NCBI RefSeq assembly: GCF_000234805.1
Contig: NC_016645.1
Location: forward strand, 248,001 to 312,000
Length of the DNA stretch: 64,000 bases
Direction of reading: 5' to 3'
Source of the DNA: Pyrobaculum ferrireducens
GTDB taxonomy: Archaea > Thermoproteota > Thermoprotei > Thermoproteales > Thermoproteaceae
The position numbers and the translations under genes were made by a program. Under the pieces are notes generated by a model that had not been told where the DNA came from, searched no databases, and saw only the letters and a list, made by a program, of their open reading frames with translations. Shown here in pieces: positions 2,260 through 25,494 of the stretch. Each line of letters starts with the position of its first letter. Position 1 is the stretch's first letter.

Positions 2260-2586
2260 CTACCTAAGTGAGTATAGCTTTTTAAAAGCCGAAACAGCGA
2301 CTAACCCCTTTCGTCTTATCATAAGCTTCCAATACACAGCTTCAAAGTCGTCAATCTCCTCTCTTAAGACTTTAACAAGGCGATACTTGTCCTCCACGTA
2401 GGGGTATATTTTTGCGAAGACGTACGCCTTGGCTACCTGTGGGAGATTACTCCAGTCATCCCTCAACTCAAGAGTTCCGCCAAAGAGCTCATACCACCAC
2501 TTCACACCCTCTGCGCTAAACGATGCAAGCTTTGTACCCCTCTGCATCAACACAGCCCTGCGACCTACAACTCTCAGCACTATCAT
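2260..2586 (-). CDS. small protein coupled to the DUF499 ATPase
   Basis: A 108-residue protein whose ATG at 2586 overlaps the TGA of the ATPase gene in an ATGA arrangement, so it is probably translationally coupled and belongs to the same operon. A TTG two codons earlier is also open but less likely. It is basic and mixed alpha/beta, with a central stretch rich in Tyr/Lys/Glu (AYVFAKIYPYVEDKYRLVKV). No motif I recognise. By position it may be an accessory factor of the helicase-methylase-ATPase system. Confidence 0.75.
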   Translation of the reverse strand: MIVLRVVGRRAVLMQRGTKLASFSAEGVKWWYELFGGTLELRDDWSNLPQVAKAYVFAKIYPYVEDKYRLVKVLREEIDDFEAVYWKLMIRRKGLVAVSAFKKLYSLR

Positions 2587-5321
2587 GAGCAACTCCTTAC
2601 GCGTGCCAGTATCTTCACATCGTTGTAAATCTTAGCAAGATTCGCCACCGGTTGCGTTATCTCTTTCTCCTTCACATCAACCTCTAGCGAAACACTAGCC
2701 CTACCCCCCTCACTCCCTAAGGTGATTAGATACGACAAAAGCTTCTTTACTGCGGCGAGATCCTTGGCGCTCCATGTAGAAGTGATCCCCTCGTCGCTAA
2801 ACTCCGCAGAGGCGCTGGCGTCTACCACCTCTACCCCCACGGTGGATAGTTGCTCTATCAACAACTTCACCCTATAGACGTCTTCGCCGCTTATACTCAG
2901 GTGGAGTAGAGAGGAGCCCACAGCCTCGCCCAGCGGGACAATTTTCTCTACACACGTAGGCTGCGGCTTTGCTACATCAACAACTTCAACAGGCTTGACG
3001 GCCTTTTTTGCCGTCTCGACACGATCAACCACTTCCTTCGGAGGACTCAGTAGGATGGACTGCGCATCTCTAGGATCACACTCAAGCATCTTTAACGCCT
3101 TCCTAACGATTTCCGAATCTGGCAGACTCCTCAGCTCTTTCTCAGCTTGCGGCCAGTAATACGTGGTACCGCAACTCAGCACGACTTTACCCTCCTCTGC
3201 GAGCCTTTTCAAAACACTATCTATCTCGTCTGGGCTGGTGATGGGGAGGTCGGGATCTCGGTATAAGTCTTCCTTTGCCTCAGATATAAGGACTCTACCA
3301 GCATTTCTTAACCTAGGCTCTAGATAGGTCTGGAAGTAAAACTTGTCATTAAGCGACTCGACGAATTTTGCTATATCCTCCAGCGTCCTCTTTATCTGAG
3401 CTGATAAAAGCTCCCTAAGCTTAACAGCCGCCTTCTCCCCCCTCTCCAACGGCCCCCCGAGCTCCAGCTCAATCTTCTGGAACAAGACATCCCTTCCATA
3501 TGGAATAGCAAGACAGTTAAACGATCTATAGAACGTGATGTAGAAGTCAAGAGCCTTCTTCTCACAGAGCGCCTCTAATCTCCTCAACTGATCACCCTGA
3601 AACCTCTTCTTAAGCGACTCACATGCCACTAGGTACTTAGCCTGGTCAAGCGGGACCCCGCCGTGTAGAAGCACAACGAAGCTATTCCTATACTTCAGGC
3701 GGTCAGCCATACTCACAAGCTCTTCCAAACCTCGATTGCAGTCAACACCGGGGGACCTAGGCGACCATATATAAAGCCGGAACGCCTTCTCGTCCTTAAC
3801 CTCAGAGGGCGCCGTCAAGACGTCTATGTGGAATCTCCACCACTTGAGAGATCTCTTGAGGCGGTCCACCTCCTCTGCCAGCACCTCAAAAGCCTCGTCG
3901 TCCCGCACAGCGTTCTTGCTCTCTTCAAGAACCTTGTTAATATTAGGCTCTGCTTGGAACCAGTACCTATTCCCCTCAGTCTCCATGTACCACAGCCTCT
4001 CCAGCAACTCCTCCACCGCCTTGTCAACCGCTTTTGGATCTGTTAATTTCGGCTTGGCGGCTAGCGTCCTGATGTCGGCAAGAGTCGCACCTGTCTTCTT
4101 CACGTCGCCGCCAATGAGGGAATACACGTATAGCCCAGCCGCGGCGTAGTAATGCAACTCCCCAAGCCGCCGAGCCTCCGCCAAGTCGTGATCTATTATA
4201 CCCGCATACGAAGGCCTCCCTACACCTACCGTAAAGAAGTCCTTAAACTCCCTATCCAGCAGATCCAGATCTCCGGGCAAAATAAAGTCGCGGAACTCCT
4301 TGACGCCAGACAGCTTTTTATAAGCGGCAAGCGACAAGATATATATCAAGTCACGAGTCCTCTGAAACTCCGGTATCGTCGACGTCCTCTCCCACAAAGT
4401 CCTGATAAAAGCTGGGTGAAACGGATAAGCCAGCCTCAGCTCATTAATGCCCACCCACCCGCTATTAAACAACTCACCCCACTTCTTGTAGTAATTGGCG
4501 TATTCAGCAGCCGCGGCCTCGGCATCGGCCTCATCAACCCGTCTAAACAGCCTCCTCTTGATAATCTTATAGACCTCCTCAACACTGGCAATAGGCACAT
4601 GGTCGGTCCCACCCCTTCTAAGCACCTCATACAAATCCGACAGCTTCTTCTTAACCCAATCAGAATAAGGCGCGGAATCATCAGGCATCGACACGACGAG
4701 AATATCGCGGTTTCCAAGAGCGTCAGTAAGCCTACGGAAGAAAAGCAGAGTAGCCGACGCCTCCTGATCCCTTTGCTGGGGCCTCCGCGTCTCCAAAAAC
4801 CTGAAAAACTCACCCAGCTCGTCAACGATAATAACAACAGGCCCCTTGCCCTCAAGAGCTGACTTCAACACATCGGTCTCAGGCACCTCGCGGCCAAGAC
4901 TCCGGTTAAGACAACGCTCTAGAAACAACCACGGCGGCCACAGATTCTCAGCAGACATATCCACCGCGCACACCGAGGCCTCGGGGACACCATATCGGCT
5001 AACAAAACTCCCCACCTCTGTGTTTTCAATACGCCCTAGATCCACCCTGAACAAGTAATACACAGCGGCCAAGATATGCGTCTTACCCCCGCCAAAGCCA
5101 GATTTCAAAATCAAAACCGTATCACCACCCCTCCCAGAAACCCTACCCAACACATTTGATAAAACCTTTTGTAAAGTCTCAGTCAAGTGGGTATATTCAA
5201 AAAACTTGACAGCGTCGTCGTACGGCGGCGGGGCGTTGCCCCTCAAGATCCTCCACAGAGAAACAGCAACGTCCTCCTTAGTAAAGCGCCCAGCTGCGAT
5301 CTCCTCCCTCAACTCAATCAT
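2583..5321 (-). CDS. DUF499-family ATPase (COG1483), defence system component
   Basis: A 912-residue predicted cytoplasmic ATPase. It has a Walker A GFGGGKTH at residues 75-82, following the hydrophobic strand VLILKS, and a Walker B VVIIVDELGEFF at 162-173. These belong to the DUF499/COG1483 family, which is found in defence islands with a DUF1156 methylase and a helicase. The C-terminal third is predicted mixed alpha/beta, with the Pro/Val linker near residues 755-785 separating a last domain. Its ATG overlaps the methylase stop by four bases (ATGA), and the next small gene overlaps its own stop the same way. The biochemical role of DUF499 is not settled; it may couple ATP hydrolysis to control of the methylase and helicase. 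Confidence 0.9.
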   Translation of the reverse strand: MIELREEIAAGRFTKEDVAVSLWRILRGNAPPPYDDAVKFFEYTHLTETLQKVLSNVLGRVSGRGGDTVLILKSGFGGGKTHILAAVYYLFRVDLGRIENTEVGSFVSRYGVPEASVCAVDMSAENLWPPWLFLERCLNRSLGREVPETDVLKSALEGKGPVVIIVDELGEFFRFLETRRPQQRDQEASATLLFFRRLTDALGNRDILVVSMPDDSAPYSDWVKKKLSDLYEVLRRGGTDHVPIASVEEVYKIIKRRLFRRVDEADAEAAAAEYANYYKKWGELFNSGWVGINELRLAYPFHPAFIRTLWERTSTIPEFQRTRDLIYILSLAAYKKLSGVKEFRDFILPGDLDLLDREFKDFFTVGVGRPSYAGIIDHDLAEARRLGELHYYAAAGLYVYSLIGGDVKKTGATLADIRTLAAKPKLTDPKAVDKAVEELLERLWYMETEGNRYWFQAEPNINKVLEESKNAVRDDEAFEVLAEEVDRLKRSLKWWRFHIDVLTAPSEVKDEKAFRLYIWSPRSPGVDCNRGLEELVSMADRLKYRNSFVVLLHGGVPLDQAKYLVACESLKKRFQGDQLRRLEALCEKKALDFYITFYRSFNCLAIPYGRDVLFQKIELELGGPLERGEKAAVKLRELLSAQIKRTLEDIAKFVESLNDKFYFQTYLEPRLRNAGRVLISEAKEDLYRDPDLPITSPDEIDSVLKRLAEEGKVVLSCGTTYYWPQAEKELRSLPDSEIVRKALKMLECDPRDAQSILLSPPKEVVDRVETAKKAVKPVEVVDVAKPQPTCVEKIVPLGEAVGSSLLHLSISGEDVYRVKLLIEQLSTVGVEVVDASASAEFSDEGITSTWSAKDLAAVKKLLSYLITLGSEGGRASVSLEVDVKEKEITQPVANLAKIYNDVKILARVRSCS

Positions 5322-6958
5322 ACAAACTCTAGAACACCCCTATCTTTAAAGACCGATCTACAAAACATAGCGGCGAAGTTATTGACAGTATTCTTGTCAA
5401 CACCCCAGTTCTTGTACACAGCCTCAATAAACCTACACACATCCTGCATGGTAAACGGAAAGTTAGCATTCTGCAGATAGCTATTCACCTCCTGACTACC
5501 TTTGCTCTTGAATTTGCACAACATGGCGTGAACCACGTCGACGAGGGCATTGGGGAACTTACCAGCGACTTTGCACCTATCGGTAAAATCCACCAGCTCA
5601 AACACCTTCTCTTTGGTCTTCTTCCGCTCTCTTATCAGGCCCATTCTCTGAAGCTCTGTGCTGGAGGCAAAGATTTTAGAAAGGAGGTGGAGAGTATCAC
5701 TATCGAAACCTCCAGGATAGTTGTTAACGACGTATACGTAAAACGCTGTGTACTTATCTGGCGCAGATCCCCCATATAGAAACTCCACTACGGCTTTTGC
5801 CGCTATCTCGTCGGCAAAGGTGATTACATTCTCCACCGGGTTCCCCCTAAGAGACTCCAGCCTACCCGCTTGGGTGGCGATTTTAAGCGCCACGCCGTAA
5901 GCCGCAATTGTAAGATCCACCCCCCTGTAGCCCTCCCCCCACAGTTCCCTTACCGTCTTCTTAATTTCGCTCTCCATCGACGGCTTCAGCTTCTCCACGT
6001 AAGCCACAGACTCCTCCAGACGAGGTTTCGCCACTATGATAAGCGACGAAATAAAAGAGGCCTTACCAACAGCTTGCACGTCTGCCTCTGCAAAGGACTT
6101 AATGGGAAAGACGTTCACAACTCTGAAACCCGCCTCTATCAAGGCCTCGAGAATAAAGACCCAAGCCTCTCTCCTAGAGTGGGCGTAATACAGCACAAGT
6201 AGCCCATCGTCTTGTAACACTCTTCTGATTTCCTTAAACGCCAACTTTGTGAGATTCCTAAAGTGTTCCTCGCTTCTCCCGCCACCTACACTTAAGTCCT
6301 CTGCTGAACGGTCGCGCCACAGCGTCAAGAAAGAGAAGGCCTCTGGATACAGATCTCCCACTACTCTCTTAAGCCATACGTACACAAAGTCGTAAGACTC
6401 TGGATACGGTATATTATCGAAATAGGGAGGATCCGTGACGACATACTTAATAGACTTATTGGGAAACGGCAGTCTTAGAGCAGAGCCGAGAACGGCGTCA
6501 AGCCTCCCAGCCCCTTCAGTGGCGCTGTGGAGAAAAGCCACGCCATCAATCACGTCATGCAACGCCCCCCACAGCGATCCAGAACTTAACGAAAATGGAT
6601 TTGTTTCAACATAATCCCAAGACATCCTCAACACCTTATGTGAAAGCGTGTGCCCTACTATTAATTTAGATTTATGCCATGTCGTAAGGAGCGAGTTGTA
6701 GTCTGCTTGTTTGGCCACCAGCCACGCTAGGACAGTCTTAATGTCGCCATCATTTAGAGATTTAATTTTCTCCACTAGTTTATTCAGGTAGTAGTGTTGC
6801 CTCTTATTGAATAAGTCTCCGAACTTCTTGTATCCATATAGAGGCGGAACGACGTTACGTGGATCGTTCGGCGCTATCAGCTCCTCTATTACATCGGTGT
6901 GTGGAACTGCATCGTAGGCCTGTCTGTCTACCGATCTTGCGGGGTAAAACTTTTTATT
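5318..6958 (-). CDS. DNA adenine methylase (DUF1156/COG1743 type), C-terminal part in shifted frame
   Basis: This frame carries the catalytic motif IV VVTDPPYFDNIPY (DPPY about 43 codons-by-three downstream of the internal ATG at 6775, residues 115-118 from there), which belongs with the motif I in the neighbouring N-terminal ORF. An ATG start at 6775 is possible, but the frame is open and protein-like well upstream of it (KFYPARSVDRQAYDAV, then PLYGYKKFGDLFNKR). It joins the N-terminal ORF exactly at the A7 run at 6957-6963. A -1 slip or one added A in the mRNA would give a single protein of about 840 residues, near normal length for the family. The stop overlaps the ATPase start. Confidence 0.85.
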   Translation of the reverse strand, partial: NKKFYPARSVDRQAYDAVPHTDVIEELIAPNDPRNVVPPLYGYKKFGDLFNKRQHYYLNKLVEKIKSLNDGDIKTVLAWLVAKQADYNSLLTTWHKSKLIVGHTLSHKVLRMSWDYVETNPFSLSSGSLWGALHDVIDGVAFLHSATEGAGRLDAVLGSALRLPFPNKSIKYVVTDPPYFDNIPYPESYDFVYVWLKRVVGDLYPEAFSFLTLWRDRSAEDLSVGGGRSEEHFRNLTKLAFKEIRRVLQDDGLLVLYYAHSRREAWVFILEALIEAGFRVVNVFPIKSFAEADVQAVGKASFISSLIIVAKPRLEESVAYVEKLKPSMESEIKKTVRELWGEGYRGVDLTIAAYGVALKIATQAGRLESLRGNPVENVITFADEIAAKAVVEFLYGGSAPDKYTAFYVYVVNNYPGGFDSDTLHLLSKIFASSTELQRMGLIRERKKTKEKVFELVDFTDRCKVAGKFPNALVDVVHAMLCKFKSKGSQEVNSYLQNANFPFTMQDVCRFIEAVYKNWGVDKNTVNNFAAMFCRSVFKDRGVLEFV

Positions 6959-7842
6959 TTTTTATCTTTGGTGATGACTAAGACGAGCCGATCGTTTCCC
7001 TTTATTTTTTCTCTTATGTAGCTGTTGCTTATGGCGGCTCCGCACTTGGGACACTTCCCGTCTCCTTCTCTGATTGTCCCTTCTATATCCTCATTGGTTA
7101 TTTCAACTTCGTAGTCCCCGTCTTTGTAAACGGGCCTCCAATAAACGCCCCGCTTTGAGTCAAGGCCGTAATCCAGCACTAGTGGGACCCACGCTCCGCA
7201 TTTTGGACACCTCACCTGTTTTACCCACAGGTAGTGGGCTACCTCATCCCCGTCATATGGGGGGTAGTACTGCGCCAATTCTTCCTCTAACTCTTTAGCT
7301 ATTCTACACGCCTCTTTGAGCAAGACGCCGGCTTTGTCTACCTGGGGATCGTTGCATAAGGCCTTCATATCTGCTCCGAAGCCCCTTCTGTACCTCTTCT
7401 TTAGCTCTTCCCATACTTTTACGTTGATGAGATCGCGTCTCCTTTGGATTATTTCAATGGTTTTCAGTGCCAGCCACTGTACGGGGTTATAGTCTATAGC
7501 TACAGCATCTGCCCCAAGCCTTATAGCTTCGAGGGGGATGGAGCCCCCTCCGGCGAATGGATCAAGGATTTTGACGCCTTTGAGCCTTTCTTTGATTTCA
7601 GCTGGGGGATTTTTCTCAAAGCCTTCCTCTGGTAGGCCTAACGCCTTCTTTGCCAGTTGGTGATCCAGATCCTCGAAGAGGGCTGTGAGTAGTATGAATC
7701 TGGAGACTATTAGGGGGGCTCGTGCAAGGGAGGTGGCCATTTCGAAGTGAGGGGGTCTGTAACTTCTCTCTTTGACCGCGAGTGCGTCTACTTGTCTCTT
7801 TATTTCTTTCCAGGGTCCTGAAAAAGGTCTCTCAATTATCAT
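6928..7842 (-). CDS. DNA adenine methylase (DUF1156/COG1743 type), N-terminal part
   Basis: Begins at ATG 7842, overlapping the last 11 bases of the helicase gene. The DUF1156-like N-terminus (residues 30-60) is followed by the SAM-binding motif I KILDPFAGGGSIPLEA at 92-106, then two CPKC zinc-ribbon knuckles near residues 216 and 267. That matches the description of COG1743 as an adenine-specific methylase with a zinc ribbon. In the zero frame the protein runs into out-of-frame sequence (KSFTPQDR) and stops at 6928, before the catalytic DPPY motif. Alone it cannot be a complete enzyme. Full function needs frameshifting at the A7 run, or the gene is broken. Confidence 0.85.
   Translation of the reverse strand: MIIERPFSGPWKEIKRQVDALAVKERSYRPPHFEMATSLARAPLIVSRFILLTALFEDLDHQLAKKALGLPEEGFEKNPPAEIKERLKGVKILDPFAGGGSIPLEAIRLGADAVAIDYNPVQWLALKTIEIIQRRRDLINVKVWEELKKRYRRGFGADMKALCNDPQVDKAGVLLKEACRIAKELEEELAQYYPPYDGDEVAHYLWVKQVRCPKCGAWVPLVLDYGLDSKRGVYWRPVYKDGDYEVEITNEDIEGTIREGDGKCPKCGAAISNSYIREKIKGNDRLVLVITKDKKIKSFTPQDR
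6950..6966 (-). other. A7 slippage or frameshift site in the methylase gene
   Basis: On the minus strand the sequence reads GAT AAA AAA ATA AAA AG. A one-base backward slip on AAA AAA, or one extra A added by RNA polymerase, changes the frame from the N-terminal ORF to the C-terminal ORF and restores a continuous methylase. The alternatives are a true inactivating frameshift or a sequencing error in the homopolymer. Confidence 0.7.
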
Positions 7843-10798
7843 ATGGTAGCTCTACTGTTGGTGTTATTAGTTTGGTGAATTCGTTGTAGGGTATTACGTA
7901 TTTCTCTTGTGTTACTTTGTATTTACGTACGTGGTTTGCCAAGTGGGTACAGGGATCGCGGTATTTTTTCACTGTATTGTTGCTTAGGTCTACCACGTAT
8001 AGATACATGTGGTTTTTAAGCGCCTTTGTGTACTGTAGATCTACGAGTAGGGCGGCGCGGCGGGCGCGGTTTGTCTTGCTGGCGCACAGCGCGGCCCACT
8101 CCACTGGCTGAATGTGGATTTTGCTGTCTGGGCCTTTTACCGTCTTTACCTCCACCAGTCTGACTCCGTCGGGGCATACAGCTATGTAGTCGACACCTGT
8201 CATTGGTATGTGTCTCAGATCAACTATGTGGCACCCCTCTTTTCTATCTAGTTCCATGGCTATTTCCTCGCCTTTGGCGCCTTGTTCCATCAAGTCGCTT
8301 CCCCACTCGACTCCTAGCGTGAGGTAGCCTAGTGGCTTGTATATGGCTGTGAATAAGGTTGCCGTCTCTATCTTGGCATTGCCGCATGCCTCTCTCAGCA
8401 TGTTAACTGTTGCCTCTAGTTTCTGTAGGAGCTCTTCTTTTTGGCTGGCTTTTTGTGCTTCTGTTAGGCCCTTTTTCTTGTCTATTGCTTTTAGCATGGA
8501 GGTGTACTCGGCGAGTATGGCGTTTTCCTTGTTTTGACAGAGTTTTTTGACTTGCTCCTGTAGCTTTGCCTTCACTTCACCTAGTGCCTCTTCGGGTGGC
8601 TGTGGGCTTTGTTTTGACTCCTGTATATATATGGGGAGGGTAATAGCGGAGAGTGGGACTTGGCCTTTTTGGCACTGGGTGGTGTTGGGCTGGTAGTAGG
8701 CGGCTACGTGGCTTAGTGTGTATTTTTCTAAGCGGTGTCCTTCGGGAATAGCAACCTCTGCCGTGCCTTTTATGACCCAGAGGTTGCCGTCTGCGTAGCA
8801 CGGCTTGTCTACCTCTGCCAATATGGAGCTTGGGAGTTTTTCTAGGTGGTACTGAATTACTGCCTTGGCGAGGGGGTGTTCTACAGTTATCCTCTCGGGG
8901 CAGTTTGACGAGAGGCCGAAGCCGACTAGGCCTGTGCACGCCCCGCGGCAGAGACTGGCTAGCTCTTTTGGTAGGTATTTTATTCTGAAGCAACCACCTG
9001 CCTCGTCGTATGATCTGGGGTCGAGGGTGTTTAGCGTGCCGAGTACCAGGGTTTGGAGTTCCTCATCCGTGACGTAGTCTATACATCTAGGATCTTTTTG
9101 GAGTCTGACTCGGTCTTTTACTAGCAGGTCCTCTAGATCTTTAAGGGTGGCTTTTGACTGCGCGAGGCGTTCTACTTCTTCTGAGGGGTCTCGGCCTTTC
9201 AGCGCTGCGTCGATTAGCTTGGCGAAGTCTCTCTCGTCGGCGAGGTTTCCTAGGTATTCAAACACTCTGCCGAGCGCTTTTCTTATCTCCTCTAACTTCT
9301 TGAGGAGGAGTTCGTAGACGCGTCCGTCTATGGTGCCGTCGAGTAGGAAGTTGTAGACTAAGACGGGCCTCCTCTGGCCGTATCTGTGCACTCTGCCGAT
9401 TCTCTGATCTATGCGTGTGGGGTTCCACGGGAGGTCGTAGTTGATTAGGAGATTCGCGACTTGGAGGTTGAGGCCTTCTGAGGCGGCGTCTGTTGCCACT
9501 AGGATCTGGCCTTTGTCTCTGAACTCGGCCTCGGCCGCTTTGCGCTCCTCGTCTGACATGCCTCCGTGGAGGAGAACTACGTGGTAGCCGTCTTTTCTTA
9601 GCCTCTCTGCGAGATAGTGCATTGTGTCTCTGTACTGGGTGAAGACGATTATCTTTTCTGAGACCTTTCCCAAGACCTCTCCTAGTACCTTTTTCAATGT
9701 GTTATACTTGGTGTCAGTGGCGAGGGCTTGGCCAAGCTGGTGTAATCTCCTTAGCATTTCAATCTCCTTGTCTAGCTGGGTCTCGTCGACTACGCGTTGT
9801 ATAGCCTCAAGCTCGCTTTTCGGGGTTTCGGTTGGCTTGAGCAGGCCCCTCTTTATGGCTTCTAAGGCTTTTAGTCTTCTCTCGATGGTCCTCATGGCGG
9901 CGTATGTGCTTGAGGACGCTCTCTTTAGGAATACCGTAGCCACGAGGCCTATGGCCGCCCTGCGCTTCCCCTTGTACTTCTGGGCTATTCCGTAGTAGTA
10001 CCGGACGTACTTCTCGACCTCTCCGTAGAACTGCGCCTCGTCAGGTGAGGGGGCTATTTTCAACGTTGTGGAGTGTCTCTCTGGTATGCCGGTTTCGTCG
10101 TGGACGTCCTCTCTTAGTCTCCTAACGACGTACCTCTTAACGGCAAGTCTAAGAGAGTCGTCGTCTGTAACTGAGCGGTCTATGAGCCTTATCCGTGCCA
10201 TGAAGTCTAGCCTATCCCCGTGGTGTGGAGTGGCCGAGAGGAGCAGGACGTTTTTCGTAGCGGAGGCCAGCCTCTCGGCGGCTTGGTACCTCTTGGTGGG
10301 TTCGCGGCCCCTTGCGGTTAGGTTATGTGCCTCGTCGAATACCACGAAGTCCCACCCCTGTTGAAGAAAGTCATCTACCCTCCTTTTCAAGAAATCTATG
10401 GAGACGATGCCGCAGTTGGTATCGCAACGCTCTCTGCAGACTTGGCACTCTATGTCGAATTTCTCCGCCAGTTCTCTCATCCACTGGAAGACCAGCATCT
10501 TCGGCACGACGAGTAGCACCTTCTTTACGTGGCCTCTCATCATTAGCTCTTTTATCAAGAGGCCGGCCATGACGGTTTTGCCGAGGCCGACATCGTCGGC
10601 GAGTAACAGCCTAACTGCCCCCTCCTCGTAGTAGCGACGCAGTCCAAAATTTACAAAATCAAGCTGATACCTAAGAGCATCAACTCTACTATGCGAAGGA
10701 TTTACACACGGCGTGTAGTTACTAAGTAGATGAATCCTCAAGGCAAGCAGTGAAAGCAAGTTATATGGATACGGGGAATATCCCCCGCTAGAGGCCAT
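7832..10798 (-). CDS. SNF2-type superfamily 2 helicase with DUF3883 domain, defence system component
   Basis: A 988-residue ATP-dependent DNA translocase, first gene of the helicase-methylase-ATPase operon. Motifs: I DDVGLGKT (about 68-75), II FDEAH (about 155), III LSATPHHGD, V ATDAASEGLNLQ and VI QRIGRVHRYGQ near 480. A C-terminal DUF3883 region (near 850-930) has GVDYIAVCPDGVRLVEVKT, resembling a restriction-endonuclease-like core. Between motifs Ia and II there is an unusual cysteine cluster, C-x2-C-x3-C-x3-C (residues about 118-129), which could bind a metal. The ATG at 10798 is preferred to the TTG at 10810 because a TATA-like element (10822-10833) lies about 28 bases upstream. Confidence 0.92.
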   Translation of the reverse strand: MASSGGYSPYPYNLLSLLALRIHLLSNYTPCVNPSHSRVDALRYQLDFVNFGLRRYYEEGAVRLLLADDVGLGKTVMAGLLIKELMMRGHVKKVLLVVPKMLVFQWMRELAEKFDIECQVCRERCDTNCGIVSIDFLKRRVDDFLQQGWDFVVFDEAHNLTARGREPTKRYQAAERLASATKNVLLLSATPHHGDRLDFMARIRLIDRSVTDDDSLRLAVKRYVVRRLREDVHDETGIPERHSTTLKIAPSPDEAQFYGEVEKYVRYYYGIAQKYKGKRRAAIGLVATVFLKRASSSTYAAMRTIERRLKALEAIKRGLLKPTETPKSELEAIQRVVDETQLDKEIEMLRRLHQLGQALATDTKYNTLKKVLGEVLGKVSEKIIVFTQYRDTMHYLAERLRKDGYHVVLLHGGMSDEERKAAEAEFRDKGQILVATDAASEGLNLQVANLLINYDLPWNPTRIDQRIGRVHRYGQRRPVLVYNFLLDGTIDGRVYELLLKKLEEIRKALGRVFEYLGNLADERDFAKLIDAALKGRDPSEEVERLAQSKATLKDLEDLLVKDRVRLQKDPRCIDYVTDEELQTLVLGTLNTLDPRSYDEAGGCFRIKYLPKELASLCRGACTGLVGFGLSSNCPERITVEHPLAKAVIQYHLEKLPSSILAEVDKPCYADGNLWVIKGTAEVAIPEGHRLEKYTLSHVAAYYQPNTTQCQKGQVPLSAITLPIYIQESKQSPQPPEEALGEVKAKLQEQVKKLCQNKENAILAEYTSMLKAIDKKKGLTEAQKASQKEELLQKLEATVNMLREACGNAKIETATLFTAIYKPLGYLTLGVEWGSDLMEQGAKGEEIAMELDRKEGCHIVDLRHIPMTGVDYIAVCPDGVRLVEVKTVKGPDSKIHIQPVEWAALCASKTNRARRAALLVDLQYTKALKNHMYLYVVDLSNNTVKKYRDPCTHLANHVRKYKVTQEKYVIPYNEFTKLITPTVELPYDN

Positions 10799-10819
10799 AA
10801 AAACGCGCAAAAACGGACA

Positions 10820-13733: not shown

Positions 13734-16700
13734 GTGGTTGTCGCTGGCGACTTGTTTGCGCCGTATAATAAGGAGAGGGCTGACCGGTACCCCTTCCCCG
13801 CTGTGGTGGTTGGACCGCCTCGTAGCGGCAAGACATTCTTTAGAACTAACTACGGGGTGGAGGCCGGGGAGAAGATCGCCGTCGAGAAGAGCGAACTCGC
13901 CGAGGAGGCGGGTGGGGGGCCGTATAGGCTGGTCTACTACATCCCGTGGGACGACGCGGAGAGATACGCCAGCGGCGACGCAAAGAGGGCCGTCGAGCTA
14001 ATCAAACGGCATTTTACGCCTGTGGAGTACCTCGGGGTAAGATACATGCCGCCTGGCTTCGTGGCTGAGGTGGTGAGGAGGCTGGAGGAGGGCGGCGAGG
14101 GAGCCGCCGTGAAGTACCTAGAAGAGCAACGGGAGGCCTACGAAAAATTCTCCACGTTGCTGGCGCCGGACAAGTGGGATAGGGTACGTGAAGTGTTTAA
14201 GAGAATTGGCTACTTCACCTTGAGGGAGGCGGTGTCGTTTTTGACGGAGGTATTGTGTATCGCCGGCGCTCTCCCCGTTTCTAAATCCGTCCCCCTCGTT
14301 TCTAAATTTCTAGATCTGGTGGCGGCTGTCATAAAAGTCTTCGGCAAAAACTGGATTACGCAGTGGATAGAGCAGGGGGAGAGGTGGAGAGGCCTACACG
14401 AAGACCTGCGGAAGGTGTTGGCGTGGAGAGCCGCCGCGAAGCTGGGAAGAAGCGGAGAGGAGGTGGAGAAGGCGCTGGACGCGCTCTACGGAATAGACAC
14501 CACAAAGCTGGAGGAGGTGGTGAAGAAAATCGAGGAGAAGCTCGCCGAGCTGGAGAGTGGGGTCTCTAGGCTTGAGGATAGGCTCAAGCCCGTCAACGCC
14601 GTCTATACAGAGCCAGAGGAGCTGGGCGTGGAGCGCAGAGACGGCGTGTTGTACGTAATGGGCGCGCCGTACGTAGATCCGGCGCGGCACGGCCTAGCAC
14701 AAGCCGTGGATGAGGTGGAGAGGAAGGTGCGGGAGGTGGTGGAGAGGGGCGGCGTCCTTGCCATAGTCGGCCCAAGAGGAGTCGGCAAGTCCACACTGGC
14801 TAGGGCCATGCTGGCGGAGGTTCTGAGAAGGGCGGCGGTTAGAGGCGTCGTGGACGTGGGGAGGCTGGGGCACAAGGATTTGCCATATGTGGTTGAGAGA
14901 GTAGGCCGTAGCTATGTCCTGTTCTACGATCCCTCTACGCCTAGATTCTACGAGCTGGGTGGTCTTGAAAAGCCACTGGAAGGGCCGAGTCCTGAGGCCC
15001 CCGGCGTAGTGGCTGAGCTTGTCAACTTAGCGCACCGCGGGGGGCGGCACATAGCGTCGGCGGTTTTGGTACTGCCGGTGGACGTCTACAACGCGCTGGG
15101 CGAGGAGGTGAAGAGGCGCATTACTCCCGTCGTTCTTGACTTGAGGAGCGTGGATTTCCTCGCCGAGATAATGAGGCGGTACTCCGGTTGCCAGCTGGAA
15201 GGAGAGAGACTGAGGGCGCTGGCCGAGGAAATTGCGAAATCCGACGAGGGCCACACCCTAATCGCCAGACTAGTCGGCGAGGAGTTGGGCAGGCGGGGCT
15301 GCCAGCTTGAGAAGGTGGAGGAGATGGTGAAGGCGGCCGGGGGGAAGGCCCTTAGGTTTATGCTTATTTACGTCAACGAGATGTTGAGAGTTAGGTGGAG
15401 GGATCCCTCCGGCACGTATGAAGACGAGGATGTGGCCGAGATTTTTTCACAAATTCTAGCGGCGAGGCAATACTACAGCCGAGACCTAGGCCCGGGGCGC
15501 GTGGTCGCGCCGCCGCTTCTCTTGGAGAGATGGGCTAGGTGGAGATGTGCCAAGTTATTTAAGAGCGAGAGATGTCCCAGAGAGCTCCCGCCCAAAGAGG
15601 TGTACAGCTGGCTCTCCCGGAGGCACCACGACCTGATAGAAACCGCACTGACTCTAGCCGCGTATGCAAATCTGTTAGAAAAAGCGGATAGAGAAGACGT
15701 CCGTAAAATAGTTGAAGACGCGGAGGTGGAGTTGAGAGTTTGGAAAAGGGCGAAGACAAGCCCCTACACCGTTGTCCACTTTCTTGTAGAATACGGCCCC
15801 GATTTAGAAAGGGAGTGGGAGGGGGCCACCTGTCTAGAGAAATTTGCATTGATGCTCGGCGCCGCCATCGCTGACCAACCATACAAGCCATTTGCCGAAG
15901 CGGCAGAGGAGGCTGAAGAAGACCTAAAGGACGCCGCCGAAAGGATAGGGAGGAGGTGTGTGATAGACGGCTATCTGCTGGCCGACGGCGAGCTGACGCC
16001 ATTCACCCGCGAGCTTCTGCGGGCAATGGCCTTAGAAGGCAAGATGCCGAAGCCCTTCGCAAGCCAACACGGCAAAGCTCTGGAGGAGGTGGAGAAGCTG
16101 GTAAAGACGTGGAGGGAGAGGGGAGGCTTCAAGCGGTGGGAGGCTATCTACGGTCTTGGCTTGGCCGCAGTGGTTGCGAGGGCGGAGGCGCTGGATAGAG
16201 ATGCGGCTGAAAAGGCGCTGGAGGCGGCTGTGCCAGCTGTGCAACGGGCGGGATCTCCGATCGCTGTTGGTGTTATTCTCGACGTGCTTTCGCAGTTGAA
16301 GGAACACGCGCCGAGCTGGTGGGTCGCCGTGCTTTACGCCGCGGCTACGCCGGCTGTGGTTGAGCAAAAGGAACTGGCAGAACGTATTTTAGAAGAGGTT
16401 GAGTGGGCTAAGGAGCGTGTGGAAGAAGACTGGGCAAGAGCGCTACTCGCCGTTGCCTATGCAACAGTGCCTACAAAATATACCGGGTCTGAGGAATCAC
16501 GTGGAGATTTATGTCGGCTTCTAGGCGGTATTCATGACCCTGATTTAAAAACTCTGGCAGAGATAAATACGCTTATGCCCCTTGCCGAGGGAGGCCTCTC
16601 ACCGTGTGGTGTCGACATGTGTACAGAAGAGGCAAGAGAGGGCTGTATGGAGTTTCTGGAAAAGGCGTTTGAAAGGAAGAAAGGCGAGCTGTTGTCAAAA

Positions 16701-17873
16701 CTGGAGGAGCTGAGGGAAAAAGTGAAGAAAAACAAACTAAGCCCGGAACTGGAGAAGTACCTAGCCGCCTTATCTCTAGCGAGGCCACCAGTGGCGATTC
16801 AGATAGTGCTGTCAGTGGCTGAGGCTACGCTGTACCACAGCTTTGCGAGGGTCAAACTATATGCTGGCAAGCTAGAAGAGGCAAAGAAATACTATACCAT
16901 GGCGGCTGAACTTTATAAAAAGCTGGGGCAGTGGGAAAACTACTTAGTTGCTTCTTCTTTGGCCGCTAGAGCCGGTGTGTTGAAAGCTGTTGACCTTCTT
17001 AACGCCGCTGAGATTTTTGAAAAACTGTGGAAAGAAACGAAAGAGCACATAGAGCCGACTGCTGGTATGATGTATGTTGCCTCTGGCGTATTAGCTAAGT
17101 ATCTTGTCTACCTGGCGGCTTCCGGCAGTATAGAAAAGGCGGCTGAGGCGTTAAGAGAACTCGGTTGGTTGCTTAGTTATAGAAGCGATGCACACATCGC
17201 AACTCTCTATATGTTGAGATTGTTAGGCGTTGTGGCGGAGGCGCCAGACACCGGCGAGCTGTTAAAGGCGTTGGAAAGATACGCCCATCCGCTTCTTAAG
17301 CCAGCTCTAGCGGCTTCGCTTGGCGCTCCGCCAAAGCCCATAGATGTAGCGTCGATGTGTGCTGAAGCCGCCGAGGTGACACCCGATTTGTACAAACGTG
17401 TGATTGAAACTACAGAGGGGGATGTTGACCTGTCTCAACTGGGGGAATACGCTTGGCCTTTCGCGTTTTGTCTCGACGCCTACAAAGCCGTTACAGGCGA
17501 CATGGAGGCGCTTAACCGAATACGTGAGCGTGTAAAAGAGTGGTTAATGGAAGGGTCAGAGCTCCTTTCTGTACTAGATCGGCTTGATGCTGTGGGGCTG
17601 GTGCAAGTGTTAGCGCCTATACGCTCACGTGGCCGGCTTATTCTTCTGCTTAGGACCCTCGACGAGGCTAGAGGCGCCGAGGGCGCAGAGCGGGAGAGGC
17701 TTCTCGAGCTGGCGCGGACACACGCGCTGGCAGGCAAATATGAGTATAGGGGGACTATAGGCGAGACGCTTTTCGGCTGGGTAGCCGATGCTGTTAAGAA
17801 ATGCGGCGGCTATACGAACAACTGCGAGGACTTAAAGCTGGCGTTGCTCAAGCTCTACTACCTTCACATCTAG
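13734..17873 (+). CDS. 1379-residue protein with two P-loops and helical repeats (STAND-like)
   Basis: The N-terminal P-loop VVVGPPRSGKTF lies at residues 24-35. A helical and coiled-coil stretch follows (about 225-285), then a second P-loop AIVGPRGVGKST at 343-354 with a following Walker B-like YVLFYDPS. The C-terminal half (about 750-1379) is almost all helix, with TPR-like pairs such as EEAKKYYTMAAELYKKLGQW near residue 1050. P-loop NTPase plus helical repeats is the build of STAND-type sensors, but the two nucleotide sites are unusual. GTG 13734 is about 23 bases after a TATATATAAA box, so it is leaderless. Function unknown; a defence or regulatory role is a guess from layout and context. 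Confidence 0.8.
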   Translation: MVVAGDLFAPYNKERADRYPFPAVVVGPPRSGKTFFRTNYGVEAGEKIAVEKSELAEEAGGGPYRLVYYIPWDDAERYASGDAKRAVELIKRHFTPVEYLGVRYMPPGFVAEVVRRLEEGGEGAAVKYLEEQREAYEKFSTLLAPDKWDRVREVFKRIGYFTLREAVSFLTEVLCIAGALPVSKSVPLVSKFLDLVAAVIKVFGKNWITQWIEQGERWRGLHEDLRKVLAWRAAAKLGRSGEEVEKALDALYGIDTTKLEEVVKKIEEKLAELESGVSRLEDRLKPVNAVYTEPEELGVERRDGVLYVMGAPYVDPARHGLAQAVDEVERKVREVVERGGVLAIVGPRGVGKSTLARAMLAEVLRRAAVRGVVDVGRLGHKDLPYVVERVGRSYVLFYDPSTPRFYELGGLEKPLEGPSPEAPGVVAELVNLAHRGGRHIASAVLVLPVDVYNALGEEVKRRITPVVLDLRSVDFLAEIMRRYSGCQLEGERLRALAEEIAKSDEGHTLIARLVGEELGRRGCQLEKVEEMVKAAGGKALRFMLIYVNEMLRVRWRDPSGTYEDEDVAEIFSQILAARQYYSRDLGPGRVVAPPLLLERWARWRCAKLFKSERCPRELPPKEVYSWLSRRHHDLIETALTLAAYANLLEKADREDVRKIVEDAEVELRVWKRAKTSPYTVVHFLVEYGPDLEREWEGATCLEKFALMLGAAIADQPYKPFAEAAEEAEEDLKDAAERIGRRCVIDGYLLADGELTPFTRELLRAMALEGKMPKPFASQHGKALEEVEKLVKTWRERGGFKRWEAIYGLGLAAVVARAEALDRDAAEKALEAAVPAVQRAGSPIAVGVILDVLSQLKEHAPSWWVAVLYAAATPAVVEQKELAERILEEVEWAKERVEEDWARALLAVAYATVPTKYTGSEESRGDLCRLLGGIHDPDLKTLAEINTLMPLAEGGLSPCGVDMCTEEAREGCMEFLEKAFERKKGELLSKLEELREKVKKNKLSPELEKYLAALSLARPPVAIQIVLSVAEATLYHSFARVKLYAGKLEEAKKYYTMAAELYKKLGQWENYLVASSLAARAGVLKAVDLLNAAEIFEKLWKETKEHIEPTAGMMYVASGVLAKYLVYLAASGSIEKAAEALRELGWLLSYRSDAHIATLYMLRLLGVVAEAPDTGELLKALERYAHPLLKPALAASLGAPPKPIDVASMCAEAAEVTPDLYKRVIETTEGDVDLSQLGEYAWPFAFCLDAYKAVTGDMEALNRIRERVKEWLMEGSELLSVLDRLDAVGLVQVLAPIRSRGRLILLLRTLDEARGAEGAERERLLELARTHALAGKYEYRGTIGETLFGWVADAVKKCGGYTNNCEDLKLALLKLYYLHI

Positions 17874-17959
17874 TCGGCCGAAGCTGGTGGATAGCTGGCA
17901 GAGGCGTCTTTAGACTACCCCGCCTCACCACAGCGGTTAATAAGCCTCGCTGGGTGGAG

Positions 17960-18517
17960 CTATGCCTGGACCAGCCACTTCTCCAGCCCTCTGGCACACC
18001 TGACCGCTCTCTCCGCCGCCTTCTTCAACTTGTCGTACATCTCCCTTCTGTCTTCTCCGCATGCCTCGGCCAGCTTCTCGGCCAGAGACAGCAGAGCCGA
18101 CGGGCTGTAGCCGACGGCGTAGGAGCCGAGTGGGGTTCTGATCAACAAACGGCCCCTCCTCACCTCCGCCTCCACGGGGCACCGGTCCATTGTCATGTCT
18201 ATCATCTCGATGGCCCTCTTCGTGAGGCGGTAGACGACGCGTGTCCTCCCGCCCCTCTCAACCCTCGTCCACTTGAGGAGGCATAGCTCCTGGGCCTTCT
18301 CCAACACGTAGACAGCATCCCCGCCGAAGGCCCTGTGCAGATCCCAGTAAGACACCTCGCCGCCCAGCCCAACGGCGATTTTCACCGCACGCCAGACCTT
18401 GCCAAGCTCCACAAAATCCACTCCGTATGTATAGCACCGCCAAAAATCCCCATCAGGTATTTTACACAGGTAGAGGGGTGGACCGAAACTAAAAACACGC
18501 CTTTCCCCTATAAACAC
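17960..18517 (-). CDS. winged-helix DNA-binding protein
   Basis: A 185-residue protein. Residues about 35-105 look like a winged helix: helix VWRAVKIAVGLGG, a helix-turn-helix around SYWDLHRAFGG and YVLEKAQELCLLKW, then a wing with VERGGRTRVVYRLT. The C-terminus (130-185) is helical. It is convergent with the large P-loop gene and divergent from the ParA operon, whose promoter region starts right at its 5' end, so it may regulate that operon. A decayed copy lies at 58640-58860 next to a second PaREP2b gene, which argues that this gene belongs to the mobile element. Confidence 0.75.
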   Translation of the reverse strand: MFIGERRVFSFGPPLYLCKIPDGDFWRCYTYGVDFVELGKVWRAVKIAVGLGGEVSYWDLHRAFGGDAVYVLEKAQELCLLKWTRVERGGRTRVVYRLTKRAIEMIDMTMDRCPVEAEVRRGRLLIRTPLGSYAVGYSPSALLSLAEKLAEACGEDRREMYDKLKKAAERAVRCARGLEKWLVQA

Positions 18518-18811
18518 TGAGTGGGGGAAAGTAAAGCGGGGCGCCGGGGGTCGACAGCGGACTTAATTAACAGCCGCGTATTTAGGCGCCTGCCCACGGG
18601 CTGGGAGAGGGCATTGGGTGCGGACTCGGCCAGCCTGCCCTTTGACCTCTCGTTGCCCAGTCCTCGCCGGAGTTTTGGCTGGGCCGTCAGAAGGGGGCAT
18701 CCGCCGGCTGTGGAGGGGCCTTTTGGAGTCTTCCGCCGCGTTTAGCTGTTTTTAAACGGCTTGTTAGACGTGGTGTGTGTTGAGTCGAAGCCGGCGTGTG
18801 CGGAGCGGCGG

Positions 18812-18866
18812 TTTGTACAAATTTTGAGAGGCGCCGAGTTTTTGTACAATACGCCGTGTCGTACAA
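18812..18866. promoter_or_regulatory. three TTGTACAA operator-like palindromes
   Basis: TTTGTACAAA (18812-18821), TTGTACAA (18842-18849) and TCGTACAA (18859-18866) lie just upstream of the ParA-like gene. Centres are 29 and 17 bases apart. Two are perfect palindromes, the third has one mismatch. The third ends six bases before the GTG start, so a bound protein would block transcription or translation start. The rest of 18518-18811 holds no convincing gene. Confidence 0.6.
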
Positions 18867-18872
18867 GGGGAG

Positions 18873-19577
18873 GTGAGGCCGGTTAAAACTGTGGTTGTCT
18901 ACTCCCTAGACGGAGGGGTGGGGAGGACCACCTTGTCCGCTGTCCTTTCTGTGGCTAGGGGGTATGTCCTCATGGTTGATATGGACTGGGAGAGGGCTGG
19001 GCTGTCTCAGCTCTTCAAAGCGCCTAGGAGGCCGGGTTGGCTTGCGCCGTATTTAGGCGCGGGGGTGCCGTATGTACACCGCGTCTCCCCAACGCTTTAC
19101 CTAATACCGGGCTACGAGGCGGCTCTTCTCTACACGAGGCGTGGGGAGGACTTCGCCAGAGAGGTGGAGGAGGCTTTTCTCGACTTCGCCGAGCGCCTCC
19201 CCGCGCTGGCTCAGAGGCTGGGAATCCCCGTAGACCTCGTGGTAATCGACACCGCGGCGGCGCTGCGGCTGGGGATTCTGGCAGAGATGCGGAAGATGGG
19301 GGTCTACGGCGTGTTTGTGGGAGACCGCCGCCTCGTCTCAAAAATTTCAGAGGCGAAGGCTGAGCAGTACCGCCGGTACCTGGCCTACTCCTCGGTGGCT
19401 GTGTTGAATCTTTTGGAGAGGGACGAGTTGAAAATCGCGAGGAAGTTGACGCCCGCGGCTATTAAGAGGGTTGCCGTCGGAGACCGCCGCGGCGTGTCCG
19501 TCGCCGAAGCCGTGTTGAGAGATAGAGAAAACCGCAAGTCGATAGACTACGTGCTCGCCGCGTTAAAAACGTCGTGA
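18873..19577 (+). CDS. ParA/MinD-like ATPase
   Basis: A 234-residue cytoplasmic ATPase. The deviant Walker A SLDGGVGRTT at residues 10-19 replaces the usual KGGxGKT lysine pair with GG...R, and is followed by VLMVDMDWERAGL (Walker A' type aspartate). LVVIDTAAALRLG is the Walker B strand. ParA-like proteins position or partition DNA or protein complexes. It is first in a tightly packed operon of DNA-transfer-like genes. GTG 18873 lies within GGGGAGGTGAGG, so the exact start is unclear; GTG 18891 is an alternative. Confidence 0.8.
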   Translation: MRPVKTVVVYSLDGGVGRTTLSAVLSVARGYVLMVDMDWERAGLSQLFKAPRRPGWLAPYLGAGVPYVHRVSPTLYLIPGYEAALLYTRRGEDFAREVEEAFLDFAERLPALAQRLGIPVDLVVIDTAAALRLGILAEMRKMGVYGVFVGDRRLVSKISEAKAEQYRRYLAYSSVAVLNLLERDELKIARKLTPAAIKRVAVGDRRGVSVAEAVLRDRENRKSIDYVLAALKTS

Positions 19578-19640
19578 TGAGGGGCGGCCGGCGTGCGGCT
19601 GGAGGCGGAGGGGGCTCCGCGGGAGCGGCGTGTGTGTAGA

Positions 19641-19652
19641 AAGTTTTTCCCC
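19641..19652 (+). promoter_or_regulatory. shared AAGTTTTTCCCC box
   Basis: This box lies about 31 bases before the GTG at 19672. Near-identical boxes lie at 27190 and 31197 at similar distances from starts of other genes of this element, suggesting an element-specific promoter or regulator site. Confidence 0.35.
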
Positions 19653-19665
19653 CCGCCAGGCGCAG

Positions 19666-20145
19666 GTGGGCGTGAAGTCTGTGGCCGTCGTGGGGCCTCC
19701 CGGCGCTGGCAAGACGCTGGTGGCCACGTCGCTGGCGCTTTACCTACACCTAGCCACCGCCGGCGTGGCTTATGTAGACAAGTCTGTTACGAAGGCGGGC
19801 GCCGGCTTGGTGAAGAGCTACCTGCCACTGGCCGCCGACGTGGAGGAGGCGGCGGAGCTGGGCGTTGACTACGTCGTCATCGACGCGGCCCCCTACGACG
19901 TGCCCCCGGCGGATGTATACATCTTCGTCTTAGAGCCCACAGACCTCAGATACTTCACGGGGGAGGGGGTGTACGTGGTGGTGAACAAAACCTCGCGGTG
20001 GTCTCTAAGAGGGATACCTTTCGACAGCAGAATCTCCTGGGCTATGCAGGCGGGCGTGCCGCCCGTGGTCGCAGACATCAAGGGCTTCGAGAGGACTAGG
20101 AAGAGAATTGTGAAGGTGGTGAAGGAGATCGGGGATGGGCTATGA
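19666..20145 (+). CDS. small P-loop ATPase, ParA/CobQ-like
   Basis: About 159 residues with VAVVGPPGAGKTLVATSLAL, a Walker A near the N-terminus, then VAYVDKSV and the Walker B DYVVIDAAPYD. The order and strand pattern fit the ParA/CobQ/CobB group, but the Walker A is of the classical GxxGxGKT kind, and the protein is short, with a NKTSRW segment like the NK.D region of these folds. GTG 19666 or 19672 is chosen because upstream codons from 19630 look non-coding. It is followed by a gene overlapping its stop (ATGA). Confidence 0.7.
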   Translation: MGVKSVAVVGPPGAGKTLVATSLALYLHLATAGVAYVDKSVTKAGAGLVKSYLPLAADVEEAAELGVDYVVIDAAPYDVPPADVYIFVLEPTDLRYFTGEGVYVVVNKTSRWSLRGIPFDSRISWAMQAGVPPVVADIKGFERTRKRIVKVVKEIGDGL

Positions 20146-20564
20146 GGCGGGGGGAGGCGGGCTACTTAGAGCTTAGGCGGGAGCTTAAGAGGAAGATGGA
20201 GGAGTTGGGGAAGGCGGCGAGGGGCGTCAGAGTGTTGCCGGATCCCAAGCCGCCTGGGTTGAAAATCGGCGTCTTGCCGGCGGAGGCCTGGCCCAGGGCG
20301 TTGCGGGTGAGGCCGAGGAATCCTGAGGCTTGGGATCTCTGTGTAAATTTCCTGGGGGATTTGGACTGCTACCACAAGGCGGTTAAGCTGTGGGGCAACA
20401 AGGACGCCTACGCCCTGGTGCTGAGAGCCGTTATGTTCGGCGCCGACGTCAAGGCGGTGGTGGACGCGCTGAGCCGCGGCGATTTTCAGAAGGCTAGGGA
20501 GCTCGTCTACAGAGGCAGGGCTCCCGCGCAACAAATAGACGAGCTTGTGGCGGGGCGGAGATGA
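20142..20564 (+). CDS. hypothetical protein in the DNA-transfer operon
   Basis: A 140-residue, basic, helical protein; the ATG overlaps the previous TGA, and its own TGA overlaps the next ATG. The N-terminal 30 residues are a charged amphipathic helix (LELRRELKRKMEELGKAA). The rest contains two predicted helical pairs with one Cys pair (DLCVNFLGDLDCY). No family recognised. Position directly before the VirB4-like ATPase suggests a partner protein. Confidence 0.7.
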   Translation: MRRGEAGYLELRRELKRKMEELGKAARGVRVLPDPKPPGLKIGVLPAEAWPRALRVRPRNPEAWDLCVNFLGDLDCYHKAVKLWGNKDAYALVLRAVMFGADVKAVVDALSRGDFQKARELVYRGRAPAQQIDELVAGRR

Positions 20565-24938: not shown

Positions 24939-25494
24939 CCCCCTTAGAGACGCCGTGGAGAAGCTGAGGCGCGACTTCCCAGGCAAGTCCCACAGCTGGA
25001 TTAAAAGGGCCTTGCTGAGGCTCGGCGACGTGAGAGAGGTGAGGGACGGCCTCTACCTCGTCGAAGGCCGTAGAGAGCTCGGCGATTGGAAGCCTCTGTA
25101 TCAAGTCTGGTTTTCCAACGCCGACAGGAGGTGGTACTGCAGTTGTTACCTTACGCAATTCGGCCTCCGCAGAAGGCGGGATATATGCACCCACGTAGCC
25201 GCTGTGCTTCTCTTTAGGCGCTACAAGAAAGCATTGGAGAGGGTTCAACATAGGCGGGTCTACATCGCCGAGGCTGAGGTGGAGCGCCGGCAGAAAATCG
25301 CCGCCAACGGAGAGCTCTACCTAAAGCCTGTGAGAAGCCTCCCCCTCTTCGCCAGCCCCCGCTACCGCGTATTTGTCATATCAGAGGAGAGGCGTATTGT
25401 CATTAAATGCGGCGGCTACGTCGTAGCGGAGGCCGAGGGGGAGGAAGTCCCCCTGGCCACCGCCAAATTCCTGGCGGAGAGTTATGAGAGTTAA
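24928..25494 (+). CDS. SWIM zinc-finger protein
   Basis: A 188-residue protein. The segment WYCSCYLTQFGLRRRRDICT followed by H gives the C-x-C-x(n)-C-x-H signature of SWIM zinc fingers (Cys at about 70 and 72, Cys-x-His about 87-89). SWIM domains bind DNA or proteins and are often found near recombinases or helicases. Flanks are basic. It overlaps the ATPase gene by 11 bases and the next gene by 11, so it is co-translated. Its partner might be the RadA paralogue two genes downstream. Confidence 0.78.
   Translation: MRRDPLRDAVEKLRRDFPGKSHSWIKRALLRLGDVREVRDGLYLVEGRRELGDWKPLYQVWFSNADRRWYCSCYLTQFGLRRRRDICTHVAAVLLFRRYKKALERVQHRRVYIAEAEVERRQKIAANGELYLKPVRSLPLFASPRYRVFVISEERRIVIKCGGYVVAEAEGEEVPLATAKFLAESYES

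What the first reader, a model, noticed from the sequence alone, without database searches (positions are those of the whole stretch)
6928..7010. A7 run splits the methylase and could be a programmed slip
Motif I and the zinc ribbons are in one frame, DPPY in the other. The -1 frame is open and protein-like right from the A7 run, far upstream of its first ATG. A single slip on AAA AAA restores a protein of about 840 residues. Programmed frameshifting or transcript slippage in a defence methylase would act as an expression control; a random mutation would instead disable the methylase while leaving the helicase and ATPase intact.
Basis: seen in the sequence. Interest (0 to 1): 0.75.

Follow-up and report, generated by a model that had tools for sequence, protein, structure and literature searches.

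The report
Frame-broken methylase in archaeal defence operon
In the heat-loving archaeon Pyrobaculum sp. 1860, the DNA-methylase gene of a three-gene virus-defence operon is cut into two reading frames at a run of seven A's; this is most likely a recent one-base slip (or a miscounted base) in an otherwise well-kept gene, not a dedicated frameshift signal.

Summary
On the minus strand, HmaB (the DUF1156-type adenine methylase of an Hma / "Type-1 BREX-related" operon) is split at A7 (6957-6963). ORF1 (7842-6928) carries motif I and the Zn-ribbon cysteines; the -1 frame (to 5318) carries DPPY. One -1 slip restores 841 codons, the length of the intact orthologue in the sister species.

The genome is Pyrobaculum sp. 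1860. The sister (~95-96% identical) has the same operon with HmaB intact, and every other homologue carrying both halves is a single frame. Constraint is strong on both sides of the run (dN/dS ~0.09-0.10) and no second lesion exists, so the break is recent or bypassed.

Programmed slippage is not supported. The run is absent from the sister and out of phase for tandem -1 slippage; no stimulatory RNA fold; HmaB is the only clean mid-gene transition among 79 A7 tracts in 1.8 Mb. Best reading: replication slippage in a Lys-rich loop of the target-recognition insert, possibly switchable as in pglX; then a miscounted base; then transcript or ribosome slippage.

By-products: the HmaB centre is ~60% identical while flanks are ~97% (specificity-region replacement). 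An A8 frame transition in a membrane HTH gene, shared by both species, is a better recoding candidate.

The parts
6957..6963 (-). A7 run (T7 on the + strand), the frame-transition site; 0-frame codons GAT AAA AAA ATA
6928..7842 (-). HmaB ORF1: N-terminal part with motif I (DPFAGGG) and Zn-ribbon cysteines of the TRD insert; ends 9 codons after the run
   Evidence: PADLOC HmaB 2.7e-17
5318..6961 (-). HmaB -1 frame: rest of the TRD insert, DPPY motif IV and C-terminal domains; no usual start codon until GTG 6775
   Evidence: PADLOC HmaB 1.4e-37
7832..10810 (-). HmaA, Swi2/Snf2 helicase with a C-terminal nuclease-like region (weak NERD hit); intact
   Evidence: HmaA 2.3e-95
2583..5321 (-). HmaC, DUF499 AAA+ ATPase, start overlaps HmaB stop as ATGA (5321-5318); intact
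   Evidence: DUF499 2.4e-29; HmaC 3.7e-57
6080..7370 (-). Centre of HmaB (most of the predicted TRD insert plus motif IV region): about 60-65% DNA identity to the sister species while the flanking genes are about 97% identical

Best explanation
The operon is an Hma (Type-1 BREX-related) defence system inherited in working order. In the sequenced clone its methylase HmaB carries a one-base length change in a run of A's that encodes a lysine-rich, poorly conserved loop of the target-recognition insert. The change arose recently by DNA slippage during replication, so ordinary translation now ends 9 codons past the run and yields a 304-residue fragment without motif IV. Because the run can gain or lose a base again, the switch may be reversible, giving methylase-on and methylase-off cells, as known for the G-tract in pglX. 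Shown: the split, its position, the intact relatives, constraint on both halves, absence of other lesions. Inferred: that the base is really missing in the DNA, that the change came from replication slippage, and any reversibility.
For: All homologues with both halves are a single open frame: sister G003 844 codons, own paralogue 998, and the others 791-1054 codons. Constraint on both halves against the sister: dN/dS 0.088 (N part) and 0.104 (C part), against 0.097 and 0.149 for HmaA and HmaC. HmaA and HmaC are intact, with synonymous divergence of 0.08-0.10. No second stop or indel breaks HmaB. The run lies in a loop that varies in length between alleles: VITKDKKNKKFYPAR against LITEDKSFYPAK. 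Frame breaks at A7 are rare here: HmaB is the only clean mid-gene case among 79 A7 tracts in 1.8 Mb. Precedent: phase variation through a G-tract in pglX of the related Pgl/BREX systems (PMC4365076; PMC6326788).
Against: No second strain or reads with the same HmaB allele were available, so a missing base cannot be told from a miscounted one. The constraint was measured over the whole divergence from the sister and does not date the break. Seven A's is short for a phase-variable tract, and homopolymer lengths are nearly always the same in the two species. An effector with a nuclease-like domain is still encoded while the protecting methylase is lost, which would be costly unless HmaB is also needed for attack.
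Confidence: 0.45

Rival explanations
1. Sequencing artefact: the true run is A8 (or another in-frame length) and the gene is whole; a base-caller miscounted the homopolymer.
For: Intact relatives, strong constraint and no other lesion are what an error predicts. The strain is Pyrobaculum sp. 1860 (a protein 100% identical to PDB 4H73), published in 2012 (reference). From memory, not verified, it was sequenced by 454, which miscounts homopolymers; P. oguniense of the same year was 454-based.
Against: Where the sister can be compared, nearly all A/T tracts of 7-8 agree in length (1 of 14 differs, in front of a start codon). Only 5 frame changes were found in 387 comparable genes and one clean case among 79 A7 tracts, so the assembly is not error-rich.
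Confidence: 0.28
2. Slippage decoding: RNA polymerase or the ribosome slips on A7 often enough to make useful amounts of the 841-residue methylase, by design or as tolerated rescue.
For: One -1 slip restores exactly the sister length. Archaeal -1 frameshifting on A_AAA_AAU is established for S. solfataricus fucA1 (PMC8211752), and bacterial A-runs can rescue genes by transcript slippage (PMC1088944). In this same genome and its sister, an A8 run splits a membrane HTH gene at the same place, and the -1 frame downstream looks constrained (pN/pS 0.39).
Against: The run and the split are not conserved in the sister or elsewhere. The phase is non-canonical: the HTH gene reads A_AAA_AAA, this one T_AAA_AAA then AUA. 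No downstream structure. In many bacteria avoidance of runs starts at nine (PMC1088944). Other A7 tracts are ordinary coding.
Confidence: 0.2
3. Functional two-piece methylase: both fragments are made separately and assemble.
For: Split enzymes exist in principle, and both pieces are long.
Against: ORF2 has no ATG/GTG/TTG for 62 codons, and a start at GTG 6775 would drop the conserved LFNxRQ segment. The break is inside the target-recognition insert. No relative is split.
Confidence: 0.03
4. Older pseudogene: the defence operon is being lost and the frame break is one sign of it.
For: The 0 frame encodes only a truncated methylase.
Against: No other stop or frame break in any of the three genes, and low dN/dS throughout.
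Confidence: 0.04

Closest known systems
Hma system (PADLOC, PMC8565338), now also 'Type-1 BR' (DUF499-centred BREX-related) systems (PMC12839542)
   Same: Helicase, DUF1156-type N6-methylase and DUF499 ATPase in one operon; TRD insert with Zn cysteines between motif I and DPPY
   Different: HmaB is split in two frames here; HmaA carries only a weak NERD-type nuclease hit at its C-terminus
Phase variation of pglX (Pgl / BREX) through a homopolymer tract
   Same: A one-base length change in a homopolymer inside the methylase gene of a related defence system breaks the frame
   Different: A7 rather than a G tract; no evidence of switching; only one genome
S. solfataricus fucA1 programmed -1 frameshift (A_AAA_AAU)
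   Same: Archaeal gene in two ORFs joined by a -1 shift on an A-run
   Different: fucA1 has a canonical heptamer with a putative stem-loop, seen in two strains and tested; here the phase is wrong, no structure stands out and the site is not conserved
Genes rescued by transcriptional slippage on A-runs (bacteria, IS elements)
   Same: A frame break at an A-run which a slipped transcript would restore
   Different: Those runs are mostly eight to nine or more bases; this one is seven

Membership tests
Hma / Type-1 BREX-related system | Adjacent helicase, methylase and DUF499 ATPase genes | tested here: met
   PADLOC HmaA 2.3e-95, HmaB 1.4e-37 and 2.7e-17, HmaC 3.7e-57 in one operon
Hma / Type-1 BREX-related system | N6-methylase with TRD insert bearing Zn-finger cysteines between motif I and DPPY | tested here: met
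   Motif order DPFAGGG, CPKC..CPKC, DPPY across the two frames; conserved in the alignment; architecture as in PMC12839542. Fold not modelled
Hma / Type-1 BREX-related system | Methylase encoded as one open frame (usual in relatives, not part of the formal definition) | tested here: not met
   Split at 6957-6963; single frame in all homologues with both halves
Hma / Type-1 BREX-related system | C-terminal active PD-(D/E)XK nuclease on the helicase (79% of taxa) | tested here: inconclusive
   Weak NERD hit at residues 844-899 (8.6e-4, below cut-off) with D...VEVK-like motif
Programmed -1 ribosomal frameshifting | Slippery heptamer X_XXY_YYZ in the 0 frame | tested here: not met
   0 frame reads T_AAA_AAA then A_AAA_AUA
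Programmed -1 ribosomal frameshifting | Stimulatory RNA structure 5-9 nt downstream | tested here: not met
   Fold z = -0.79, no pairing within 12 nt of the run; 37 C parameters only
Programmed -1 ribosomal frameshifting | Site and split conserved among relatives | tested here: not met
   Sister and all others in one frame, no run in the sister
Programmed -1 ribosomal frameshifting | Fusion protein made in the cell | not testable with these tools
   needs mass spectrometry
Transcriptional slippage | Homopolymer long enough for the organism's RNA polymerase to slip, with heterogeneous mRNA | not testable with these tools
   A7 present; needs cDNA; Pyrobaculum threshold unknown
Phase-variable methylase gene | Homopolymer inside the coding region whose length change moves the frame | tested here: met
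   A7 in HmaB
Phase-variable methylase gene | Length polymorphism among cells or strains | not testable with these tools
   one genome per species held, no reads; the sister allele is replaced in this region

The most novel reading that the evidence does not exclude
Pyrobaculum sp. 1860 makes its HmaB methylase only through slippage on A7 (by RNA polymerase at very high temperature, or by the ribosome), so that self-protection and hence the whole Hma defence is dosed by slippage. To my knowledge this would be the first recoded defence methylase in archaea, with the conserved A8 split of a membrane HTH gene as a second case in the same cell.
Probability: 0.12. Interest if true: 0.7.

Novelty: new member of a known kind. 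Interest (0 to 1): 0.33.

Why it matters
If the break is a real switchable slip, homopolymer on/off control, known for BREX/Pgl methylases in bacteria, would extend to the DUF499-centred Hma systems and to hyperthermophilic archaea. If it is recoding, it would add to the very few archaeal cases. If it is a miscounted base, it warns against annotating this methylase as a pseudogene. The comparison also shows replacement of the target-recognition region of an Hma methylase between sister species, a concrete lead on how these systems change specificity.

Tried and rejected
Searched for other carriers of the same allele: 61 genomes of relatives, GTDB contigs (two distant bacterial hits), IMG/VR (none), plasmids (only below 60% identity). 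Only the sister is close, and its centre is a different allele, so the run's history could not be read. Widespread sequencing error: rejected as a general feature of this assembly, not for this one site. A general A7 recoding habit: rejected; the other two A7 flags look like gene starts or overlaps next to the run (one reads M-K-K into a ParA-like ATPase), not mid-gene breaks. RNA structure or Rfam element at the site: none. HMA block as a recent transfer because it is 97% identical: dropped, since the two genomes are about 95-96% identical overall. The 2012 genome paper is not held, so the sequencing platform is from memory. One search was a mistaken call and is not used.

Full report
WHAT IS THERE. 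The minus strand of window 2583-10810 holds three tightly packed genes: helicase (7832-10810), methylase in two frames (6928-7842 and 5318-6961) and DUF499 ATPase (2583-5321). HmaA's end overlaps HmaB's start, and the HmaB stop overlaps the HmaC start as ATGA. PADLOC models call them HmaA (2.3e-95), HmaB (both halves, 2.7e-17 and 1.4e-37) and HmaC (3.7e-57). Hma was named as a candidate system in PMC8565338; PMC12839542 places it as the DUF499-centred 'Type-1 BREX-related' system, with an N6-methylase whose target-recognition domain (TRD) is a large insert after core strand 2, and describes a four-cysteine Zn finger in that type of insert.

THE FRAME BREAK. The run is A7 at 6957-6963 (- strand), read GAT AAA AAA ATA in frame 0; the frame ends at TAG 6928-6930. 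The -1 frame is open from inside the run; the TAA that closes it upstream is made by the start of the run itself. Sister-species homology continues without loss across the run (ITEDK-SFYPAK in the sister; ITKDK in frame 0 and FYPAR in frame -1 here). Reading through with one -1 slip gives 841 codons, the length of the sister protein. The -1 frame has no ATG, GTG or TTG for 62 codons, so a separate start would miss the conserved LFNxRQ segment.

WHOSE GENOME. An aldehyde dehydrogenase in the same chromosome (G000, 2,467,972 bp) is 100% identical over 448 residues to PDB 4H73, which is AlDHPyr1147 of Pyrobaculum sp. 1860 (PMC5121451). The genome paper is J. Bacteriol. 2012, 194:727 (reference); it is not held. 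From memory it used 454 sequencing; I could not verify this.

RELATIVES. The sister species G003 is about 95-96% identical across collinear blocks. It has the same operon, about 97% identical in HmaA and HmaC, with HmaB whole (844 codons stop to stop). In 61 genomes every homologue that carries both halves is a single open frame of 791-1054 codons, including a second methylase in the same genome (998 codons). The break is unique to the window. The sister has no run at that place.

CONSTRAINT. Against the sister, dN/dS is 0.088 for the N part, 0.104 for the C part, 0.097 for HmaA and 0.149 for HmaC. No other stop or indel breaks any of the three genes. So the break is recent relative to the divergence, is bypassed in expression, or is not in the DNA. 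The measure averages over both lineages and cannot separate these.

IS THE RUN SPECIAL? In 600 kb, 13 A7+ runs lie inside ORFs, about what a synonymous-codon shuffle gives (mean 15), so the organism does not clearly avoid A7. In 1.8 Mb (73% of the genome) there are 79 A7 and one A8 tracts; a coding-potential scan flags three A7 tracts, two of which look like gene starts or overlaps beside the run, leaving HmaB as the only clean mid-gene case. That scan missed the A8 case described below, so it is not fully sensitive. Tract lengths agree between the two species at 13 of 14 A/T tracts of 7-8, and only 5 frame changes appear in 387 comparable genes. Neither sequencing error nor slippage decoding is common at A7 here; one event in about 80 tracts fits a single rare mutation or error.

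PROGRAMMED SIGNALS. The known archaeal -1 site (fucA1) is A_AAA_AAU with a putative stem-loop (PMC8211752). HmaB has T_AAA_AAA followed by AUA, so neither position allows both tRNAs to re-pair; only single-tRNA slippage is possible. The stretch after the run folds no better than shuffles (z = -0.79; parameters at 37 C, while the organism lives far hotter). Bacterial genomes commonly avoid A/T runs from about nine (PMC1088944); the threshold in Pyrobaculum is unknown.

MECHANISM. I rank replication slippage in a Lys-rich, length-variable loop of the TRD insert first (0.45), because runs of this kind are ordinary mutational targets and because the related pglX genes are switched by such tracts (PMC4365076; PMC6326788). 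A miscounted base comes second (0.28). Useful transcript or ribosome slippage comes third (0.20), helped by the HTH case below. A functional two-piece enzyme and an old pseudogene are unlikely (0.03 and 0.04). As encoded, the fragment lacks DPPY and should not methylate; what that does to defence depends on whether HmaB is needed for attack as well as for self-protection, which is inferred in the literature, not shown here.

SIDE RESULT 1: TRD REPLACEMENT. HmaA and HmaC are about 97% identical between the sisters, but the middle of HmaB (about 7370-6080) falls to roughly 60-65% DNA identity with saturated synonymous sites while amino-acid change stays low. The sister's centre has GC3 of 0.2-0.28 against about 0.5-0.7 at its ends. 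This looks like replacement of the specificity region by recombination, most likely in the sister, and explains why the run's history cannot be read from it.

SIDE RESULT 2: A CONSERVED A8 TRANSITION. At G000 696120-696127 an A8 run ends the 0 frame (..VLKKRK*) while the -1 frame continues into an HTH domain. In the sister the DNA around the run is nearly the same, with the same A8 and the same split, while most other Pyrobaculum genomes have the two parts in one frame. The 0-frame reading A_AAA_AAA is a canonical slippery heptamer. Downstream, the -1 frame shows pN/pS 0.39 with 6 synonymous and 7 non-synonymous changes, against 2.6 in frame 0. Small numbers, but two independent assemblies agree, so this is the better recoding candidate.

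VERDICT. A real, correctly located frame break in an Hma methylase; the programmed-slip reading is possible but not supported. Interest is modest unless reads, cDNA or peptides show switching or recoding.

Noticed in passing
G000:C1:696120-696127 (locus L113, near base 1498) and the sister locus L114: A8 run splits a membrane-anchored HTH regulator gene into 0 and -1 frames in both Pyrobaculum sp. 1860 and its sister species; most other Pyrobaculum genomes have one frame. Canonical A_AAA_AAA phase and a constrained -1 frame downstream make it a candidate for -1 frameshifting or transcript slippage.
   Followed up: partly
window 6080-7370, compared with locus L029: Centre of HmaB is about 60-65% identical between sister species whose flanking Hma genes are about 97% identical; the sister's centre is AT-rich (GC3 0.2-0.28). 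Looks like replacement of the target-recognition region.
   Followed up: partly
G000:C1 about 247,000-296,000 (the window begins at 248,001): About 49 kb including the Hma operon is missing from the matching place of the sister's contig C1; there the Hma block lies on another contig (C4) next to sequence not found in the 1.8 Mb of this genome examined. Suggests a mobile or relocated defence island.
   Followed up: partly
window 13734-26849: Run of plus-strand genes next to the Hma operon with a HerA/DUF87-like ATPase (20561-22543) and a 1379-residue protein with a weak mad8 hit; possibly an integrated element or another defence module.
   Followed up: no
G000:C1:2441438-2444062 (locus L020): Second, intact HmaB-like methylase (998 codons) in the same genome, with a likely orthologue in the sister (L021).
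   Followed up: no
G000:C1 160001-760000: Homopolymer counts drop sharply after length 7 (G/C: 668 of six, 73 of seven, 1 of eight; A/T: 239, 22, 1), which may reflect selection against long runs or undercounting.
   Followed up: no
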